Origin: Clostridia bacterium
Lineage (GTDB): Bacteria; CBDUZB01; JAGLHV01
Length of the DNA stretch: 9,275 nucleotides
Assembly: GCA_030595925.1 (NCBI GenBank)
Contig: JAUVLC010000095.1
Span: 1-9,275, forward strand
Reading direction: 5' to 3'
The position numbers were made by a program, and so were the translations under genes. Shown here one piece after another: positions 1 through 9,275 of this stretch (positions are counted from its first letter, which is position 1; each line of letters opens with the position of its first letter). The notes beneath the pieces were generated by a model, which saw only the letters and a program-made list of their open reading frames with translations, did not search any database and was not told the DNA's origin.

Positions 1-35
1 CGCCCCTACACACCTAACTCGTCACAAATAGTCTT

Positions 36-70
36 AAATCCCCCTAACCCCCTTTTTCAAAGGGGGAAAT
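36..70. repeat. Short G/C-run palindrome, probable dispersed repeat
   Basis: In an otherwise A+T-rich gene-free end, CCCCCTTT (48-55) and AAAGGGGG (59-66) form a perfect 8-bp stem with a 3-nt TTC loop. A further CCCCC run at 40-44 precedes the stem, flanked by AAAT and AAATTA. Elements of this look (C-run, short spacer, CCCCCTTTTTCAAAGGGGG) occur as dispersed intergenic repeats in many environmental bacterial genomes; that is from general knowledge and only one copy is present here. It lies about 60 nt past the stop of the asparagine synthetase-like gene, so it could slow or end transcription, but on the minus strand the stem is followed by TTAGGGGG and not by a T-run, so it is not a standard intrinsic terminator. 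The rest of 1-125 shows no gene. Confidence 0.5.
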
Positions 71-125
71 TACTTTTCATATTCTTTCATCTAATTTTTG
101 ACACTCCCTTTTCTTATTCGATTTA

Positions 126-2030
126 TCAGTTTAAAAAAGACTGATTCCAGAGTTCTAAAATAGTTAACGCCATAATCTGTTTATTATAAACTAAAGGTGA
201 CTCCTGCCTTCTTTTTAAGATATTTTCAATAAAATTATAATTAAAATATCCTCTTTGGTTAATCATCGTTGAAGAAAGGACAGATTCAGCATAATTTTTT
301 GATTTTCCTTTAAAATATCTATCTACCGGAAAATAAAACGGTTTTTTCTTCCTTTTAACTACTTTTTCGGGTAAATAATTTTTCATTGCCTTACGCAAAA
401 AACACTTATTAACCAATCCGTTTATTCTATCTTTATCTCTAAGATTTAAAGAAAATTCGACTAACCGGTGATCAAGAAAAGGAACTCTGCATTCTACTGA
501 ATTAGCCATTGCCATCCGGTCATTTTTAAAAAGAATATTATTGGGTAACCAATTTGCTAAATCCTGAAAGATTAATTCTTGCAAAAAAGTATTATCTTTT
601 TTTCTTTTAAATTTTTTCTCAAAATCTATATTCAGACCTTTTTTGCTCACCTCTATTTCCTCAAACAATTCTTTAGTATATAATTTTTTCTTATCCTCAC
701 TGGTAAACAAACTAAGCAATTCAAAATAAAATCTTTCTCTGTTCTGCCCTCCGCCAAGATAACTTAAAAATCTCCTCTTCCCCTCCTGTCCCAGAGAAGC
801 CGGATAAGGGAAAAAAAAGTCCATCACTCCCAACGGAATCAACTGCATTACTTTATTTATCAAGTTAATTTGAATAAAATCCGGAACGGATTTTTTATAA
901 AGCTCCAGATAATTTAAAACGAAATGATGAATATACCCCCCCAATAATTCATCTGCACCATCACCGGTAAGAATTACCTTTACCCCTGATTGCCTGGCTG
1001 ATTTTGAAAGACAATAAAGAGGAATAAGTATCGCATCACCTAACGGGGCATCTAAAGATTTAACTATTTCCGGTAACAATTGAAAATCTTTTTCTTTAAC
1101 AATTATTTCCTGATGCCGGGTTTTATAAAATAACGAAATTTCCCGTGCCTGTTTCAATTCATCCGGCCCGGATTCAAAACCAATACTAAATGTCTTAACC
1201 GGCTTAATAAAACCGTTCATTAATGATAAAATGGCTGTTGAATCTATTCCCCCGCTTAAATACATACCGACAGGAACGTCGCTAAGCAATCGTTTTCGCA
1301 CCGAATCAACCAGCAATTTATAATATTCCTCTTCCCAAATATGAATACTGCTCTTATTCACCTTTTTCCCTACATCCCAGTATCGATCTATCTTTACCTT
1401 CCCATTTTGATAAATTAAAACACACCCCGGAAGTAATTCAAGAATCCCTTTAAACATCGTTCCGGGACCGGGAACATAACGAAAAGTCAAATAAGCATCC
1501 AGCGATAAAAAATCCATCTCCCTTTTTACCAGAGAACTTCGGAGAATAGCTTTAATTTCGGAAGCAAAAAGAAAACATCCGCTCAAAACAGTATAATATA
1601 AAGGACAAATACCCAATCGATCACGGGCGATAAACAACTTTTTTTTTCTTTCATCCCAAAGAGCAAAAGCAAACTTTCCATTAAAACTATCTACACATTT
1701 CTCCCCTTTTTCTTCATATAAGTGGACAATAACTTCTGAATCAGTGTGAGTATAAAATATATGCCCCTTATCCCTTAATTCATCCCTCAATTCTTTAAAA
1801 TTATAAATAATTCCATTACAAACAAGGCAAATAGATCTATCTTCATTAAATAAAGGTTGATTCCCTCCTTTTAGATCTATTATACCCAGACGGTTATGCC
1901 CTAATCCTATCCGGAATTTCTTATTGTTATATTTACCTTTGCTATCCGGACCCCGGGAACTTAAAGACTCAATCATTTTATCCAGTAAATTATCCTCGTC
2001 TACACCACCAAAGCCGCAAATACCACACAC
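126..2030 (-). CDS. asnB: Asparagine synthetase (glutamine-hydrolysing)-like amidotransferase
   Basis: Two-domain cytoplasmic amidotransferase of 634 residues. The N-terminal class-II glutaminase releases ammonia from glutamine, and the C-terminal ATP-pyrophosphatase domain adenylates and amidates a carboxylate (aspartate in AsnB). Visible motifs: Cys2 as N-terminal nucleophile (MCGICGFGG), RGPD 26-29, GHNRLGIIDL 44-53 with Arg47, NGIIYN 72-77, TDSE 96-99, ARDRLGICPLYY 135-146, the PP-loop SGGIDS 259-264, TGDGADE 355-361, and a C-terminal ECRVPFLDHRLVEF signature. It is longer than E. coli AsnB (554 aa) and close to the size of amidotransferases in exosortase/exopolysaccharide clusters, so the acceptor may be a sugar acid or glycan and not free aspartate. 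The start is GTG at 2030: it alone places Cys at position 2, and a strong Shine-Dalgarno site precedes it. The gene starts 4 nt after the upstream stop, so the two are probably co-transcribed. Oddity: the usual NGEIYN glutamine-binding motif has Ile74 in place of Glu. It ends in TGA and appears complete. Confidence 0.93.
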   Translation of the reverse strand: MCGICGFGGVDEDNLLDKMIESLSSRGPDSKGKYNNKKFRIGLGHNRLGIIDLKGGNQPLFNEDRSICLVCNGIIYNFKELRDELRDKGHIFYTHTDSEVIVHLYEEKGEKCVDSFNGKFAFALWDERKKKLFIARDRLGICPLYYTVLSGCFLFASEIKAILRSSLVKREMDFLSLDAYLTFRYVPGPGTMFKGILELLPGCVLIYQNGKVKIDRYWDVGKKVNKSSIHIWEEEYYKLLVDSVRKRLLSDVPVGMYLSGGIDSTAILSLMNGFIKPVKTFSIGFESGPDELKQAREISLFYKTRHQEIIVKEKDFQLLPEIVKSLDAPLGDAILIPLYCLSKSARQSGVKVILTGDGADELLGGYIHHFVLNYLELYKKSVPDFIQINLINKVMQLIPLGVMDFFFPYPASLGQEGKRRFLSYLGGGQNRERFYFELLSLFTSEDKKKLYTKELFEEIEVSKKGLNIDFEKKFKRKKDNTFLQELIFQDLANWLPNNILFKNDRMAMANSVECRVPFLDHRLVEFSLNLRDKDRINGLVNKCFLRKAMKNYLPEKVVKRKKKPFYFPVDRYFKGKSKNYAESVLSSTMINQRGYFNYNFIENILKRRQESPLVYNKQIMALTILELWNQSFLN

Positions 2031-4397: not shown

Positions 4398-7300
4398 CTA
4401 ATTCATCCAACCTAACTTTCGTGCTTCTTTAAAATGTTTTTTTGCCTTTCTTTTTTGTCCTTTCACCTGATAGGCTAATCCTACAATATAATGGGCTTCT
4501 CCGTCAAGGGTGTTCATTTTTATTTTTTCCAACCAGTCTTTTTTTATTTTTTTATCATTAATAATGGACCGTAACGGAGAATATAAATTGGCATAATCAG
4601 GTTCTATTTTCAATATCTCTTTAAATTGTTCAACAGCTCTTTCTGTGTTTTTTTTAATTATGAACAAATTGGCTAAATTTAACCGTGCTGTTATCAATCC
4701 AGGATTAATTACAATTGCTTTTTTAAAACACAGTATGGCCGAATCAATATCAAACCCATTACCAAAACGGACATTTTTTTCATTATGCTCATAATAAATC
4801 CCTAACAGAGTATATAACCAGGCAGTTGCTTCTTTTTCACCATTTAAGGCAATCCCTTTTTTATAGGCCTGTAATTCTTTCCTATATTGTTTCCTTTGTC
4901 TATATACCCTACCTAGTAAACAATACTTCCATCCCGAATCCATAACATCCTCCTCCAGATACACCCTCAAAAAATGAGGATCCGTTTCTTTCAGTATTCC
5001 ATAAATAAGTTTGTCTAAATCACCAGCAAGGGATTGTTTAATTTCATTTTTATATTCTAGTATTTTTTCTTTACGTTCTCCCTTCTCCATAGGCCTATAC
5101 ATATAATTCAGGTAAGCCATAAAATCAAAAGGCTTCTCTTTTATCAATTCTCTATATGCCTTTAAACTTTTCTTCGGCTTTCGATAAGAAACTCTTAAGC
5201 TTGATTCCAAAGCGGACACATCTATTTCATCCGGATGCCAGCTAATATGCCGAATTAAATCCTGTTCAAAATCTTCTATATTTATTTCTTTTTGAATCTG
5301 CATGAGTTGATAATGATACAAACTAATAGCCAATCTTTCACAAAAAGACGAAGATTTCTTCTTTATTTCCTTTAAACCCTTGATAATTCCCTTTTGAAGT
5401 GAAAAAAAATATTCACTATTCTCAACTATTCGTTTTTTGCAATTCTCTCTTAAAACATTAAGCGTGTACCACCCAGTCTTAGAAGAAACAACTTTTATAT
5501 TTTCCTGTTTAGCAATCGTCCAACGTTTCCTTAATTCTTTAAATAAATTTTCCTTTAATAAATAATGCATTTCCAGTTTAGCTAAAACGCTTTCCGAATA
5601 TTTATTACTTCCATTCCAATTTAAAAAAACATTATCTCCTCTTTTATTTATCATTTTTTTATAGAATTTTTTAAAAATAGTTTGTATCTGCTTTTTCCGT
5701 GTAATCAATATTTCATACCGGGAACAACTATATGTCCCATAAACATAAAAAACCGGCTTAAATATTTCTGCTATTACATTGTTATCTATATTTTGAATGT
5801 AACCTATCAATCCTGAACCTTCTTTAAAATTAACATTAATCTCTTTACAAATGTATGCCTCCCAAAAAAAATAATAATAACTAAAATTTACCGGATCATT
5901 CTGAAGAGACAGGTTAACATTCAATGTTGGAACATTTAATGCATTAAATGCCGAATCTTTGTCAATAGCGACAATCTCTCCCTTTTTAGTAACAAGAAAA
6001 TTATCTTTTGTACTATCATGGTTAAGAATAAACCAATCAAAAATGTGCTGTTTCTGAATATAATCCCTTTGGTGCGAAACTAATTTTTTCGTTGGTATAT
6101 CACAAAAAGAGCTCATATCCGGTAAAAATTTTTGAACAGACCCAAATCTTAATTTTCCGTTAATCGGTAAACAACAATAATGTACTTCCGGCAAATTAAT
6201 TCCACAAATTAGTGCCCAAAAATATACCGCTTCCTGAATTCGGGCAACATCCAAAGCAAATGAAGGATATGTTTCAAACAACCATTTCTTTCCCAAATTA
6301 TCTTCAAGTAAATATTTTTCTATCTCCCCTTGCAAATATGGTTGATTTTTTACTAATCGAAAATTCATTTTCTTTAATATCCGGTCGTTTAACATTTTGA
6401 TTTTTTTATAAAAATAAATATTTTCTTCCATTCCGTGCTTTTCATTTTTCTCTTTATAAAAATCAAGACATTCTCGAGCTCTAAAACACTGCGGCTTCAA
6501 TTCTAAAGCATACTTATACGCTTTTATTGCTTCCGCTTCCATTCCCTGTATACGGTATAAATCTCCAATACGTTCGTAACCACCAACCGACCGGGGATTT
6601 AATTCCAATACCTTGTTATACTCCTGCATCGCCTGATTATATTCGCCTTTTAACACATATATATTTCCTAAAATAAGTCTCGTTAAAATACAGCGAGGAT
6701 TCAATTGCAAAGCTTTTTTGCATTCTCTACAGGCTTCATCATATTTACTTTCTTGCTTATATACATACGCTAATTGATTATAAGCCTGAAAATTATTTGG
6801 ATGCATTTTAACTGTTTTGCTCCACAAAGTAAAATCATCCCTCCAATCATTATTTCGTCTTACTGTTGCCCAACTATAAAAACCTAACACAAAAATCAAT
6901 ACTACCATTACTATTTTTTTAGTTTTTATCCATTTATCTATCCCTGCTGCTAAAAACATGCAAAATCCTACCAGCGGAATATACAAATATCTCTCATTAA
7001 ACAAATAAATAAAAGGTGTTATAATTAATATTGGCAATAAATTCAAAAAAACCCAGAGCAAACCCCAAAGATTTTTTTTAGAATACTTCTGAATTAAAAA
7101 ACTAAATATTCCGGCAACAAGCAGAATATCAGTTAAAATAAAACCCACCATCTTAAATGAAGGTTCCGGAACATATGTAAGCGGAAATGCACATAAATTA
7201 ATAGGGAAAAGAAGTAATTCCACAAAAGAAACAAATTTCACTATTATTTGCAATAATCCTAAGAATAAAAAGCCTTTCCCTGCCGGGTCAGAAAAAAACA

Positions 7301-8027
7301 CATTTTGCATATCCTGTAAAATAAAAAATCTAATTGCTAAATAAAAAAAAGTTACTGCAATATAACCCAAATAAAAAAAAGCCCTTTTTCTCATATCTCT
7401 TTCCGAATCAAAACAATAATCATAAGCCAAAATAATCAAAGGCAAACTAATTGCTACTTCCTTGGACAGGAGAGCTAATAAATAAAATAAATTTGAAATA
7501 CACCATAAAAATATTATATTTTTTCGGGACTTTTCCCTGCCTTGACTTTTTATGTATAAATAAAAAGATAATAAAAGAAATAAACAGGCCAACAAATTTT
7601 CATTAAAACTAATTACACAAACCGCCTCAGTAGCAATAGGATGGGAAACAAAAAACAAACCAGCCAGGAAAGAAATCCGTCTTTTTTGAAAAAGAAGAAA
7701 AGTGATTAAATAAACTAACACGGCATTTAATAAATGATTAAGCAAACTTGATAAATGATAACCAAAAGGATTCAATCCCCACAAACCATAATTAATAAAA
7801 TAAGAAAGGGTAGTTAAGGGACGCCAACTTAGCGAAAATTGTTCCCTGGAAAGCTTAAAATAATCTTTAGTAAAGAGTTTGTCAATACTACCCCAATCTT
7901 TTATAAAATCATTTTGCACTATATGGAGCCAATCATCCCAAACAAAGGAGTTATCCAAGGAGTTTGCATAAAGAATAAACCCAAAAATAATAATTATAAA
8001 GATAAATAAAAAATCTTTTTTTTTCAT
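4398..8027 (-). CDS. TMTC-like GT-C transferase fused to TPRs, a kinase-like domain and further TPRs
   Basis: A 1209-residue multidomain protein. Residues 1-400 are a TMTC-like GT-C membrane module with about 11 hydrophobic helices: FVWDDW 28-33 with the paired Asp31-Asp32, SWRPLTTLSYF 67-77, NPFGYHL 86-92, FVSHPIATEAV near 130, LLSKEVAISLPLII near 185-198, and NERYLYIPLVGF near 342-353. Eukaryotic TMTC proteins are O-mannosyltransferases with TPRs. Residues about 411-530 hold three TPRs. About 545-790 resembles the protein-kinase-like fold (HipA/PI3-4K or CotH type): Lys580/Lys581, Glu599, GSVQKF 629-634, FDWFILNHDSTKDN 663-676 with candidate catalytic Asp671 and Asn676, and metal-type Asp689 in AIDKDSAF. 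About 790-940 is helical and unrecognised; 940-1209 holds further TPR-like repeats. ATG 8027 starts 2 nt after the stop of the preceding paralogue (TAG-A-ATG), implying translational coupling. The membrane module is firm, the kinase call moderate, the substrate unknown. Confidence 0.85.
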   Translation of the reverse strand: MKKKDFLFIFIIIIFGFILYANSLDNSFVWDDWLHIVQNDFIKDWGSIDKLFTKDYFKLSREQFSLSWRPLTTLSYFINYGLWGLNPFGYHLSSLLNHLLNAVLVYLITFLLFQKRRISFLAGLFFVSHPIATEAVCVISFNENLLACLFLLLSFYLYIKSQGREKSRKNIIFLWCISNLFYLLALLSKEVAISLPLIILAYDYCFDSERDMRKRAFFYLGYIAVTFFYLAIRFFILQDMQNVFFSDPAGKGFLFLGLLQIIVKFVSFVELLLFPINLCAFPLTYVPEPSFKMVGFILTDILLVAGIFSFLIQKYSKKNLWGLLWVFLNLLPILIITPFIYLFNERYLYIPLVGFCMFLAAGIDKWIKTKKIVMVVLIFVLGFYSWATVRRNNDWRDDFTLWSKTVKMHPNNFQAYNQLAYVYKQESKYDEACRECKKALQLNPRCILTRLILGNIYVLKGEYNQAMQEYNKVLELNPRSVGGYERIGDLYRIQGMEAEAIKAYKYALELKPQCFRARECLDFYKEKNEKHGMEENIYFYKKIKMLNDRILKKMNFRLVKNQPYLQGEIEKYLLEDNLGKKWLFETYPSFALDVARIQEAVYFWALICGINLPEVHYCCLPINGKLRFGSVQKFLPDMSSFCDIPTKKLVSHQRDYIQKQHIFDWFILNHDSTKDNFLVTKKGEIVAIDKDSAFNALNVPTLNVNLSLQNDPVNFSYYYFFWEAYICKEINVNFKEGSGLIGYIQNIDNNVIAEIFKPVFYVYGTYSCSRYEILITRKKQIQTIFKKFYKKMINKRGDNVFLNWNGSNKYSESVLAKLEMHYLLKENLFKELRKRWTIAKQENIKVVSSKTGWYTLNVLRENCKKRIVENSEYFFSLQKGIIKGLKEIKKKSSSFCERLAISLYHYQLMQIQKEINIEDFEQDLIRHISWHPDEIDVSALESSLRVSYRKPKKSLKAYRELIKEKPFDFMAYLNYMYRPMEKGERKEKILEYKNEIKQSLAGDLDKLIYGILKETDPHFLRVYLEEDVMDSGWKYCLLGRVYRQRKQYRKELQAYKKGIALNGEKEATAWLYTLLGIYYEHNEKNVRFGNGFDIDSAILCFKKAIVINPGLITARLNLANLFIIKKNTERAVEQFKEILKIEPDYANLYSPLRSIINDKKIKKDWLEKIKMNTLDGEAHYIVGLAYQVKGQKRKAKKHFKEARKLGWMN
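6501..6640 (-). repeat. TPR-coding block shared with the neighbouring paralogue, copy A
   Basis: Aligns without gaps at an offset of 1600 to 8101-8240, with 23 differences in 140 bases by hand count (about 84% identity). It encodes the last two TPRs before the kinase-like domain, with shared strings such as GDLYRIQGME/GDLYQIQGME and AIKAYKYAL. The offset change from 1717 to 1600 (117 nt, 39 codons) reflects mainly the extra TPR in the other gene. Confidence 0.8.
7411..7558 (-). repeat. Near-identical paralogue block, copy A
   Basis: Aligned without gaps at an offset of 1717 to 9128-9275; I count 7 differences in 148 bases, and 7480-7558 is identical over 79 bases to the end of the window. 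It encodes residues about 157-206 of the fusion protein, ending in AYDYCF. Identity includes third codon positions, so it reflects recent shared DNA and not only protein-level constraint. Left of 7411 the two genes diverge sharply. Confidence 0.9.
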
Positions 8028-8028
8028 T

Positions 8029-9275
8029 CTATTTAGTTTCTACCTTTTTCTTATATATGCTTTCAAGAATATCCTTAACTGCTGAATACTGAGGATTTAA
8101 TTTTAAAGCATACTTATACGCTTTTATCGCTTTATCTTCCATCCCCTGTATTTGATATAAATCTCCAATATTTTTATAAATACCGGCTGAGCGGGGTTTT
8201 AATTCCAATACCTTTTTATACTCCTGCATCGCCTTAGTATACAATCCTATTTTGGTATAGCAAACACCCATGTTAATATGTGCCCCAGCATGCCCGGGAT
8301 TTAATTTAAAAACTTCCTTTATTGCTTTTATCGCCTTATTACATTCACCTTTTAATATATACACGTTTGCTAAATTAAACCATGCTTCACTATAATATGG
8401 ATTTAATTTTAAAGCTTTTCTGATTTTTTCACAAGCCTGTTCATATTTACCCTGCCGGCAGCAAATTTGGCCGAATTTATTATAAAGGGAAAAGTTATCC
8501 GGGTATTGCTCAAAAATTTTAGAAAACATTATATCGTCATTTTGCCAATCGTTATTTCGCTTCACAGTTTTTAAGCCATAAAAAAGCAACAGCCCTACCA
8601 TTACTATACTAAATGACCTTTTTAACTGTAATCCCTTATCTATCCCTATCGCCAATAACATACAAAATCCTACCAACGGAATATACAAATATCTCTCAGC
8701 AAACAGATACGAAGAAGGTATTATTATTAATATGGGAAGAATATTTAAAAAAATCCAGAGAATATTCCAAAAAAATTTTTTAGAACACTTATAGATTAAA
8801 AAACTAATCCACCCGGCAAAAAGAACAATTACCACCGAAAAAAGTATACGGAACTCAAATAAAGAATTTATGGTTAATATAAAGTATGTAAAATATAAAT
8901 TTATTGGAAAAATAAGCAATTTAATAAAACTAGCTAAGGCATATATTATTTCCAATAATGCTTTATACAAAAAATTTTCTCTGTTTACAAAACAAAAACA
9001 TGCTCTTTGTATATCCTGAAAAAACAAAAATCTAACACTCAAATAAAAAACGGTTATGCTAATATAACCGGAATAAAACACTATCTTTTCTTTTATACTT
9101 TTTATCCTTCCGTTCTTTTCTGGAAGAAAACAATAATCATAAGCCAAAATAATCAAGGGCAAACTAATTGCTACTTCTTTTGAGAAAAGAGCTAACAAAT
9201 AAAATAAATTTGAAATACACCATAAAAATATTATATTTTTTCGGGACTTTTCCCTGCCTTGACTTTTTATGTATA
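8029..9275 (-). CDS. TMTC-like GT-C glycosyltransferase with TPRs (5' end cut by window edge)
   Basis: The visible 414 codons are the 3' part of a membrane glycosyltransferase paralogous to the N-terminal module of the next gene. Readable TMTC-type segments include LFSKEVAISLPLIILAYDYCF, LLIFPINLYF, AERYLYIPLVGFC and VKRNNDW. There are about seven hydrophobic helices, then four to five TPR units (for example AWFNLANVYILKGE, AGAHINMGVCYTKIG, AIKAYKYALKLNPQ) up to the TAG stop at 8031-8029. It lacks the kinase-like extension of its neighbour and carries about one more TPR than the corresponding region there. The frame stays open to base 9275, so the gene begins outside the window. A TTG at 9198 could be read as a start but falls inside a membrane helix whose upstream codons match the paralogue exactly. 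By family it should glycosylate an acceptor outside the cytoplasmic membrane using a lipid-linked sugar; the sugar and acceptor are unknown. Confidence 0.85.
   Translation of the reverse strand, partial: YIKSQGREKSRKNIIFLWCISNLFYLLALFSKEVAISLPLIILAYDYCFLPEKNGRIKSIKEKIVFYSGYISITVFYLSVRFLFFQDIQRACFCFVNRENFLYKALLEIIYALASFIKLLIFPINLYFTYFILTINSLFEFRILFSVVIVLFAGWISFLIYKCSKKFFWNILWIFLNILPILIIIPSSYLFAERYLYIPLVGFCMLLAIGIDKGLQLKRSFSIVMVGLLLFYGLKTVKRNNDWQNDDIMFSKIFEQYPDNFSLYNKFGQICCRQGKYEQACEKIRKALKLNPYYSEAWFNLANVYILKGECNKAIKAIKEVFKLNPGHAGAHINMGVCYTKIGLYTKAMQEYKKVLELKPRSAGIYKNIGDLYQIQGMEDKAIKAYKYALKLNPQYSAVKDILESIYKKKVETK
8101..8240 (-). repeat. TPR-coding block shared with the neighbouring paralogue, copy B
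   Basis: Partner of 6501-6640. It encodes the last two TPRs of the truncated TMTC-like protein, immediately before its stop. In the neighbouring fusion gene the equivalent position continues into the kinase-like region, so this block marks where the two paralogues part. Confidence 0.8.
9128..9275 (-). repeat. Near-identical paralogue block, copy B, running off the window
   Basis: Partner of 7411-7558, in the 5'-truncated TMTC-like gene. The match is still perfect at base 9275, so the repeat is longer than can be seen. Differences cluster in 9157-9196; none occurs in 9197-9275. Confidence 0.9.

What the first reader, a model, noticed from the sequence alone, without database searches (positions are those of the whole stretch)
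4398..8027. Fusion of a TMTC-like O-glycosyltransferase, TPRs, a kinase-like domain and a second TPR array
The first 530 residues match the architecture of the neighbouring TMTC-like gene (GT-C membrane module plus TPRs). Another roughly 680 residues follow: a region with ordered kinase-like landmarks (K580/K581, E599, GSVQKF, D671, N676, D689), a helical segment and more TPRs. Known: eukaryotic TMTCs add O-mannose, and a separate kinase, POMK, phosphorylates O-mannose glycans. Inference: this polypeptide could couple glycosyl transfer to phosphorylation of the glycan or acceptor. I do not know this domain combination as a described family.
Basis: partly seen in the sequence, partly recalled or inferred. 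Interest (0 to 1): 0.75.

Follow-up and report, generated by a model that had tools for sequence, protein, structure and literature searches.

The report
Sugar transferase fused to kinase-like domain
A bacterial membrane protein joins a protein-mannosylation-type sugar transferase to a whole exported kinase-shaped protein; the kinase shape is real, but the fused copy has lost a lysine that every other relative compared with it keeps, so it is more likely a binding or regulatory module than a working kinase.

Summary
The 1209-aa ORF and its fusion architecture are real. Residues 1-395 model as a GT-C transferase (best solved match Pmt4, Z 22.8), with several but not all TMTC motifs, followed by TPRs. 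Residues 541-796 model as a kinase fold (pLDDT 90) closest to PI4-kinase II (Z 16.1), HipA-like CtkA and Fam20C. Residues 530-1207 align end to end, about 33% identical, with about ten predicted-secreted paralogues in the same genome. The fusion is therefore an exported kinase-fold+TPR protein whose signal peptide has been replaced by a TMTC-like module. It recurs in a second species of the genus under purifying selection (omega 0.19-0.22 in the kinase-like domain), so it is not an assembly artefact. More distant relatives are unannotated domains in phage MuF/ADP-ribosyltransferase capsid proteins and a Tat-exported tandem family in another phylum. D671, N676 and D689 are kept. A phosphorylating O-glycan machine is not supported; an extracytoplasmic pseudokinase-like acceptor or regulator module on a GT-C enzyme is more likely. 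New variant of known parts.

The parts
4398..8027 (-). Fusion gene, 1209 aa: TMTC-like GT-C + TPR + kinase-like domain (KLD) + helical region + TPR
   Evidence: orthologue of 1241 aa in a second species G001:C347:3157-6882
6843..8027 (-). aa 1-395, GT-C membrane module (TMTC-like): DD31-32, RP69-70, K189-E190, ERxxY kept
   Evidence: AF2 pLDDT 87.5, pTM 0.90; Pmt4 Z 22.8, ArnT Z 20.4, OST Z 22.0; motif alignment against the TMTC motif table of PMC7801869
6489..6824 (-). aa 402-513, first TPR array
   Evidence: Pfam TPR_2, TPR_1 etc.
5640..6407 (-). aa 541-796, kinase-like domain (PI4KII/HipA/Fam20-type fold)
   Evidence: AF2 pLDDT 89.6, pTM 0.89; PI4KII Z 16.1, CtkA 14.4, Fam20C 12.5; profile matches
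6273..6275 (-). E585: position of the beta3 lysine, Lys in all 31 unfused copies compared
6315..6317 (-). K571: glycine-rich-loop lysine, invariant in G000/G001 copies and also in the G119 ones
6015..6017 (-). D671, catalytic-loop Asp (NHDSTKDN)
   Evidence: D in both fusions, 18/18 phage and 8/13 paralogous copies, E in the other 5
6000..6002 (-). N676, metal-ligand position
   Evidence: N in both fusions, N or Q in phage, E/H/C/T/N in paralogues
5961..5963 (-). D689 of AIDKD (DFG-Asp equivalent), invariant
   Evidence: 33/33 rows
4998..5639 (-). aa 797-1010, helical region shared with the secreted paralogues
   Evidence: full-length BLASTP alignment of aa 530-1207 to paralogues
4407..4970 (-). 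aa 1020-1207, second TPR array
   Evidence: Pfam
8029..9273 (-). Neighbouring TMTC-like + TPR gene, cut by the contig end, no KLD
   Evidence: 75-base exact overlap with contig C67
2035..4410 (-). Downstream PMT_2 GT-C + TPR protein
   Evidence: PMT_2 E 4.9e-13
126..2030 (-). Asparagine-synthase-type amidotransferase, XrtA/EPS-locus-like
   Evidence: Asn_synthase E 1.3e-86; XrtA amidotransferase TIGR03108 E 1.3e-141 but below its cut-off

Best explanation
The protein is a polyprenyl-phosphate-sugar-dependent GT-C transferase of the TMTC/PMT type. Its extracytoplasmic C-terminal arm has been extended by a complete exported kinase-fold + TPR protein. The transferase (inferred to be active from its fold and DD motif) would move a sugar onto a protein or glycan outside the membrane. 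The kinase-fold module with its two TPR arms most likely binds and positions the acceptor, a partner (perhaps one of the secreted paralogues) or a nucleotide/phosphate ligand, without phosphorylating it, i.e. it acts as a pseudokinase-like module. Shown: the domain folds (predicted models), homology, full-length correspondence to secreted paralogues, recurrence in two species, purifying selection, and loss of the beta3 Lys only in the fused copies. Inferred: outside location of the arm, absence of phosphotransfer, acceptor or partner binding.
For: GT-C fold. Kinase fold. aa 530-1207 align end to end with secreted paralogues that carry signal peptides. Orthologous fusion in G001 with omega 0.19-0.22 in the KLD and 0.16 in the C-terminal parts. 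E585 replaces the beta3 Lys in both fusions, Lys in 31/31 others. Catalytic positions drift in the paralogues (D671->E in 5/13, N676->E/H/C/T in 12/13) and in the exported G119 family (NHHVH). All five KLD-bearing loci of G000/G001 also carry GT-C genes. TMTC topology puts the TPR arm outside (PMC7801869).
Against: The fused KLD keeps D671, N676, D689 and E599, more of the catalytic set than most paralogues, which would be odd for a dead domain. Kinases with a displaced lysine exist (WNK, from my own knowledge), and K571 sits in the glycine-rich loop. GT-C activity is itself uncertain because TMTC motifs M3 (NxN for RxD) and M5 are missing. No ligand, substrate or partner is known.
Confidence: 0.5

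Rival explanations
1. The fusion is a coupled glycosyltransferase-kinase: the GT-C half adds a sugar and the kinase half phosphorylates that sugar or the acceptor outside the membrane, with K571 (or K580/K581) standing in for the lost beta3 lysine.
For: D671, N676, D689 and E599 are all kept in both fusions. Profile and fold similarity to the FAM20 secretory kinases, which include the FAM20B xylosylkinase. Strong purifying selection on the N-lobe, omega 0.19.
Against: E585 at the beta3-Lys position. K580/K581 are N-R in the sister species. No established ATP supply outside a bacterial cytoplasm. K571 is equally invariant in copies that do have the beta3 Lys, so it is not a specific replacement.
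Confidence: 0.17
2. The kinase-fold module performs another reaction known for this fold (AMPylation, polyglutamylation, nucleotide hydrolysis), so the altered residues reflect changed chemistry rather than loss.
For: Kinase-fold pseudokinases with other chemistry exist (SidJ polyglutamylation, PMC6858067, seen). Unusual second Asp (D691, IDKD) invariant in all G000/G001 copies but Gly/Ala in phage copies.
Against: No specific signature of such chemistry was identified.
Confidence: 0.13
3. The domain is a captured phage MuF-toxin/effector domain that still serves in conflict (toxin or anti-phage), with the GT-C half as a delivery anchor.
For: Homologous domains occur in phage MuF proteins, several with a C-terminal ADP-ribosyltransferase.
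Against: In the tree the bacterial exported copies form their own group with G119 apart from the phage copies (98/93, midpoint root only). No MuF or ART domain, no immunity gene seen; PADLOC gives nothing for the fusion. The neighbourhood is glycan and envelope genes.
Confidence: 0.1
4. The fusion is an assembly chimera or a decaying pseudogene.
For: The contig ends inside near-identical TMTC genes (75-base overlap with C67; 96% identity of the paralogous N-terminus).
Against: The same junction exists intact in an independent MAG of another species at 70% identity, with omega 0.23 overall.
Confidence: 0.02

Closest known systems
TMTC1-4 O-mannosyltransferases (GT-C/PMT clan) and their bacterial TPR homologues
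   Same: GT-C fold, DD motif, RP of M2, KE of M4, ERxxY of M7, TPR tail
   Different: Lacks M3 (RxD) and M5 (DW); no DUF1736 Pfam hit (3 of 29 relatives do hit); carries an extra kinase-fold + TPR arm
PI4-kinase type II / HipA / CtkA / Fam20 atypical kinases
   Same: Fold: PI4KII Z 16.1, CtkA Z 14.4, Fam20C Z 12.5 (HipA itself not in the listed rows); catalytic loop D-x4-N and IDxD similar to PI4KII
   Different: Beta3 Lys replaced by Glu; attached to a membrane GT-C; paralogues are exported
Phage MuF (minor capsid) + kinase-like + ADP-ribosyltransferase proteins
   Same: Clear sequence homology of the kinase-like domain (tblastn down to 5e-8; profile rows)
   Different: Phage copies keep the beta3 Lys and NHDxH..N/Q; no GT-C or TPR
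Kinase-PolyVal of phage polyvalent proteins (Iyer 2017, PMC5512222)
   Same: Kinase-fold domain in large phage proteins
   Different: That family lacks the kinase C-terminal subdomain; here a C-lobe is modelled
POMK / FAM20B glycan kinases
   Same: Secretory-compartment kinases acting on glycans; the profile touches FAM20B weakly (E 0.056)
   Different: They are separate proteins in eukaryotes with intact catalytic residues; POMK not seen among listed matches

Membership tests
TMTC O-mannosyltransferase | GT-C membrane fold | tested here: met
   AF2 model, Pmt4 Z 22.8, 331 aligned, rmsd 3.8
TMTC O-mannosyltransferase | M1 DD, M4 KE and M7 ERxxY motifs | tested here: met
   D31-D32, K189-E190, E-R-Y-L-Y
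TMTC O-mannosyltransferase | M3 RxD and M5 DW motifs | tested here: not met
   N-E-N in place of RxD; FP in place of DW/DY in the fusion, VP in its local paralogue and orthologue
TMTC O-mannosyltransferase | DUF1736 (PF08409) match | tested here: not met
   No hit for the window protein; 3 of 29 relatives hit
TMTC O-mannosyltransferase | TPR tail in the extracytoplasmic space | tested here: inconclusive
   TPRs present; crude hydropathy gives 9 segments (N-in, C-out), 7 in the orthologue, 11 in TMTC
PI4KII/HipA/Fam20-type kinase superfamily | Two-lobed kinase fold of this type | tested here: met
PI4KII/HipA/Fam20-type kinase superfamily | Catalytic-loop Asp, Asn ligand and DFG-type Asp | tested here: met
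   D671, N676, D689 in both fusions
PI4KII/HipA/Fam20-type kinase superfamily | Beta3 ATP-binding lysine | tested here: not met
   E585 in both fusions, Lys in 31/31 others
PI4KII/HipA/Fam20-type kinase superfamily | Phosphotransfer activity | not testable with these tools
   needs biochemistry
POMK O-mannose kinase | POMK-type kinase fold and glycan 6-phosphorylation | tested here: inconclusive
   POMK not among the listed fold matches, which does not exclude it; activity not testable
Phage MuF-associated kinase-like domain | Sequence homology of the domain | tested here: met
Phage MuF-associated kinase-like domain | Linked MuF or ADP-ribosyltransferase domain | tested here: not met
   Pfam scan of P0001

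The most novel reading that the evidence does not exclude
A bacterial one-polypeptide glycosyltransferase-kinase that glycosylates and then phosphorylates an envelope acceptor outside the cytoplasm, using a relocated lysine (WNK-like, e.g. K571), assisted by secreted paralogues in the way Fam20A assists Fam20C.
Probability: 0.1. Interest if true: 0.85.

Novelty: new variant of a known kind. Interest (0 to 1): 0.5.

Why it matters
It exposes an apparently undescribed, locally expanded family of predicted-exported PI4KII/HipA/Fam20-type kinase-fold proteins in bacteria, linked to GT-C sugar transferases by fusion and by neighbourhood, and related to unannotated domains of phage capsid toxins. 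If the modules bind or modify acceptors of surface glycosylation, they would be bacterial analogues of secretory-pathway kinases or pseudokinases, with a natural Lys-to-Glu contrast that makes the catalysis question directly testable.

Tried and rejected
Pfam, NCBIfam and PADLOC gave no kinase or GT-C family for the fusion itself. phmmer of the KLD and of the GT-C half against the PDB found nothing useful, nor did the GT-C profile. The search for related loci with the whole protein in viral contigs found no relative, and a too-diverse alignment gave no pattern for genome contigs; a narrower one found only the G001 contigs, using a single restrictive pattern, so absence elsewhere is weak evidence. 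Phyla of G119, G189, G026 and G121 are tiny in the held set, so rarity could not be measured well; no further GT-C+KLD fusion appeared in 290 and 385 (overlapping) broadly sampled genomes. Assembly-chimera idea rejected by the G001 orthologue. POMK analogy not supported by fold ranking; absence from the list is not proof.
Full report
WHAT IS THERE. The window is contig C149 of a 2.6-Mb genome of a phylum for which only three genomes are held. The ORF at 8027..4398 (-) encodes 1209 residues without interruption. Upstream lies a truncated TMTC-like gene; downstream are a PMT_2-type GT-C + TPR protein and an asparagine-synthase-type amidotransferase. The left neighbour contig C67 overlaps the window end by exactly 75 bases and carries a VTC-domain protein, a PMT_2 GT-C, a GT2-like protein (my reading), a DUF3473 polysaccharide deacetylase and one and a half further TMTC-like genes. 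The genome also has an exosortase.

THE GT-C HALF. Pfam sees nothing in residues 1-406 of this protein, but 82 of 193 sampled genomes have homologues, typically in ORFs of 550-800 residues. Among 29 aligned relatives some hit PMT_2, PMT or TMTC_DUF1736. An AlphaFold2 model from that alignment (pLDDT 87.5, pTM 0.90) matches Pmt4, oligosaccharyltransferases and ArnT at Z 20-23 and by Foldseek. Against the TMTC motif table of PMC7801869, the fusion keeps DD, the RP of M2, KE and ERxxY, but has N-E-N where most relatives have RxD, and FP where many have DY. I therefore call it TMTC-like, not a TMTC.

THE KINASE-LIKE HALF. A profile of the domain touches PI4KII-beta, FAM20B, PI4KII-alpha, FAM20C, HipA and VPS34 in the PDB. 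Each match is weak (E 0.056 to about 0.9), and some unrelated serpins and phage proteins are interleaved, but the kinase matches lie in or around the catalytic loop and are all of one superfamily. A phage relative, L061, passes the HipA_C cut-off (31.3 against 30.5 bits) and matches PI3_PI4_kinase at 4.5e-4. The AF2 model (pLDDT 89.6, pTM 0.89) matches PI4KII (Z 16.1, 233 residues), CtkA (14.4) and Fam20C (12.5). The kinase fold is thus established at the level of prediction.

A WHOLE EXPORTED PROTEIN WAS FUSED. G000 has about ten further copies, mostly ~700-residue proteins in a tandem array on C117 and on C176; one 1122-residue protein has two kinase-like domains. Their N-termini look like signal peptides (hydrophobic stretch and A-x-A-like or similar sites; my reading, no dedicated predictor was available). 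Residues 530-1207 of the fusion align with these proteins from just after the signal peptide to the C-terminus at 31-34% identity (E down to 1e-106). The fusion is thus a secreted kinase-fold + TPR protein whose export signal has been replaced by a TMTC-like module. In TMTCs the TPR arm is on the lumenal side (PMC7801869), which is consistent with the exported state of the paralogues; hydropathy alone (9 segments here, 7 in the orthologue) does not settle the topology.

IT IS NOT AN ARTEFACT. The sister species G001 (JAGLYT01, MAG RS_13_36) has the same fusion at 1241 residues. Between the two, omega is 0.30 for the GT-C, 0.19 and 0.22 for the two kinase lobes and 0.16 for the C-terminal parts. 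A third genome of the genus, G002, shows no kinase-like domain.

CATALYTIC RESIDUES. On the 33-row alignment, D689 is invariant; D671 is D in both fusions, all 18 phage copies and 8 of 13 paralogous copies (E in the other 5); N676 is N in the fusions, N or Q in phage, and N in only 1 of 13 paralogous copies. E599 is E in the fusions and 9 of 18 phage copies and never E in paralogues. The beta3 lysine (WLFK) is present in all 31 unfused copies and is Glu (E585) only in the two fusions. The fused copies thus lack precisely the residue that all others keep. By my knowledge of kinases this usually abolishes ATP use, though WNK kinases show that a lysine in the glycine-rich loop can replace it; K571 is in that region but is equally invariant in copies that have the beta3 Lys.

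RELATIVES ELSEWHERE. Thirty-one viral contigs encode the domain, typically in large proteins; those examined with Pfam or PHROGs are mostly head proteins (MuF, VG15 or head-protease matches), several with ADP-ribosyltransferase. Annotated mycobacteriophages call the proteins 'minor capsid and ADP-ribosyltransferase fusion', 'ADP-ribosyltransferase' or hypothetical. In another phylum, G119 has at least five tandem copies with Tat-like (SRRGFL) leaders and NHHVH in place of NHD, near MBOAT-, sulfatase- and SGNH/TPR-like genes (my reading). In a maximum-likelihood tree the G000/G001 copies group together (99/95) and with G119 (98/93); the fusion's nearest paralogue is weakly C176:4768 (82/63), and the root is a midpoint root.

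ASSOCIATION WITH GT-C GENES. Standalone kinase-like genes lie beside ArnT/PMT-type GT-C + TPR genes on C117, C176 and G001:C113, and the fusion itself has GT-C neighbours. That GT-C subfamily has 15 matches on six of the 193 contigs of G000. This is suggestive, not a formal test.

MECHANISM AND RIVALS. The best-supported reading is a GT-C sugar transferase with an outside arm made of a pseudokinase-like module and TPRs that recruits or regulates an acceptor or partner (0.5). A coupled transferase-kinase is possible but disfavoured (0.17); other kinase-fold chemistry 0.13; a conflict role derived from phage proteins 0.1. Fam20A/Fam20C (own knowledge) and bacterial pseudokinases in polysaccharide synthesis (EcpK, PMC12004946, title and abstract start seen) are precedents for non-catalytic kinase folds in secretion and glycan biology.

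NOVELTY. Both modules belong to known fold families; the combination and the exported KLD + TPR family have no entry in the libraries searched, and the paper searches found no description, though only open-licence papers are covered. I rate it a new variant of a known kind.

Noticed in passing
window 1-131: Interspersed ~35-110-base repeat with several dozen other matches at 83-100% identity across many contigs of the genome, several near contig ends.
   Followed up: partly
window 9201-9275 / G000:C67:7172-7246: 75-base exact overlap of two contig ends inside nearly identical TMTC-like genes, an assembly break in a tandem gene array.
   Followed up: yes
L028:14854-16957 (G000:C117:26854-28957): One kinase-like gene of the array is split into two overlapping ORFs (172 and 539 aa) in different frames: pseudogene or sequencing error.
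   Followed up: no
L086:4698-13544 (G119:C167): Tandem family of Tat-leader kinase-fold proteins with degenerate catalytic Asp, in another phylum, near MBOAT-, sulfatase- and SGNH/TPR-like genes.
   Followed up: partly
L033-L063 (viral contigs); H1-H24 (mycobacteriophages): An unannotated HipA/PI4K-like domain with NHDxH..N/Q and IDKGQAF sits in phage minor-capsid proteins, several ending in an ADP-ribosyltransferase.
   Followed up: partly
L027:7085-8821 (G000:C117): 578-aa predicted-exported protein with no Pfam hit and a Cys-His-Asp pattern resembling transglutaminase-like proteases, within the kinase-like/GT-C cluster (my reading).
   Followed up: no
L032:568-1269 (G000:C67): VTC (polyphosphate-polymerase-type) domain protein upstream of the TMTC array.
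   Followed up: no
G000:C176 and C117: Kinase-like + TPR genes alternate with or follow ArnT/PMT-type GT-C + TPR genes, a repeated two-gene pattern.
   Followed up: partly
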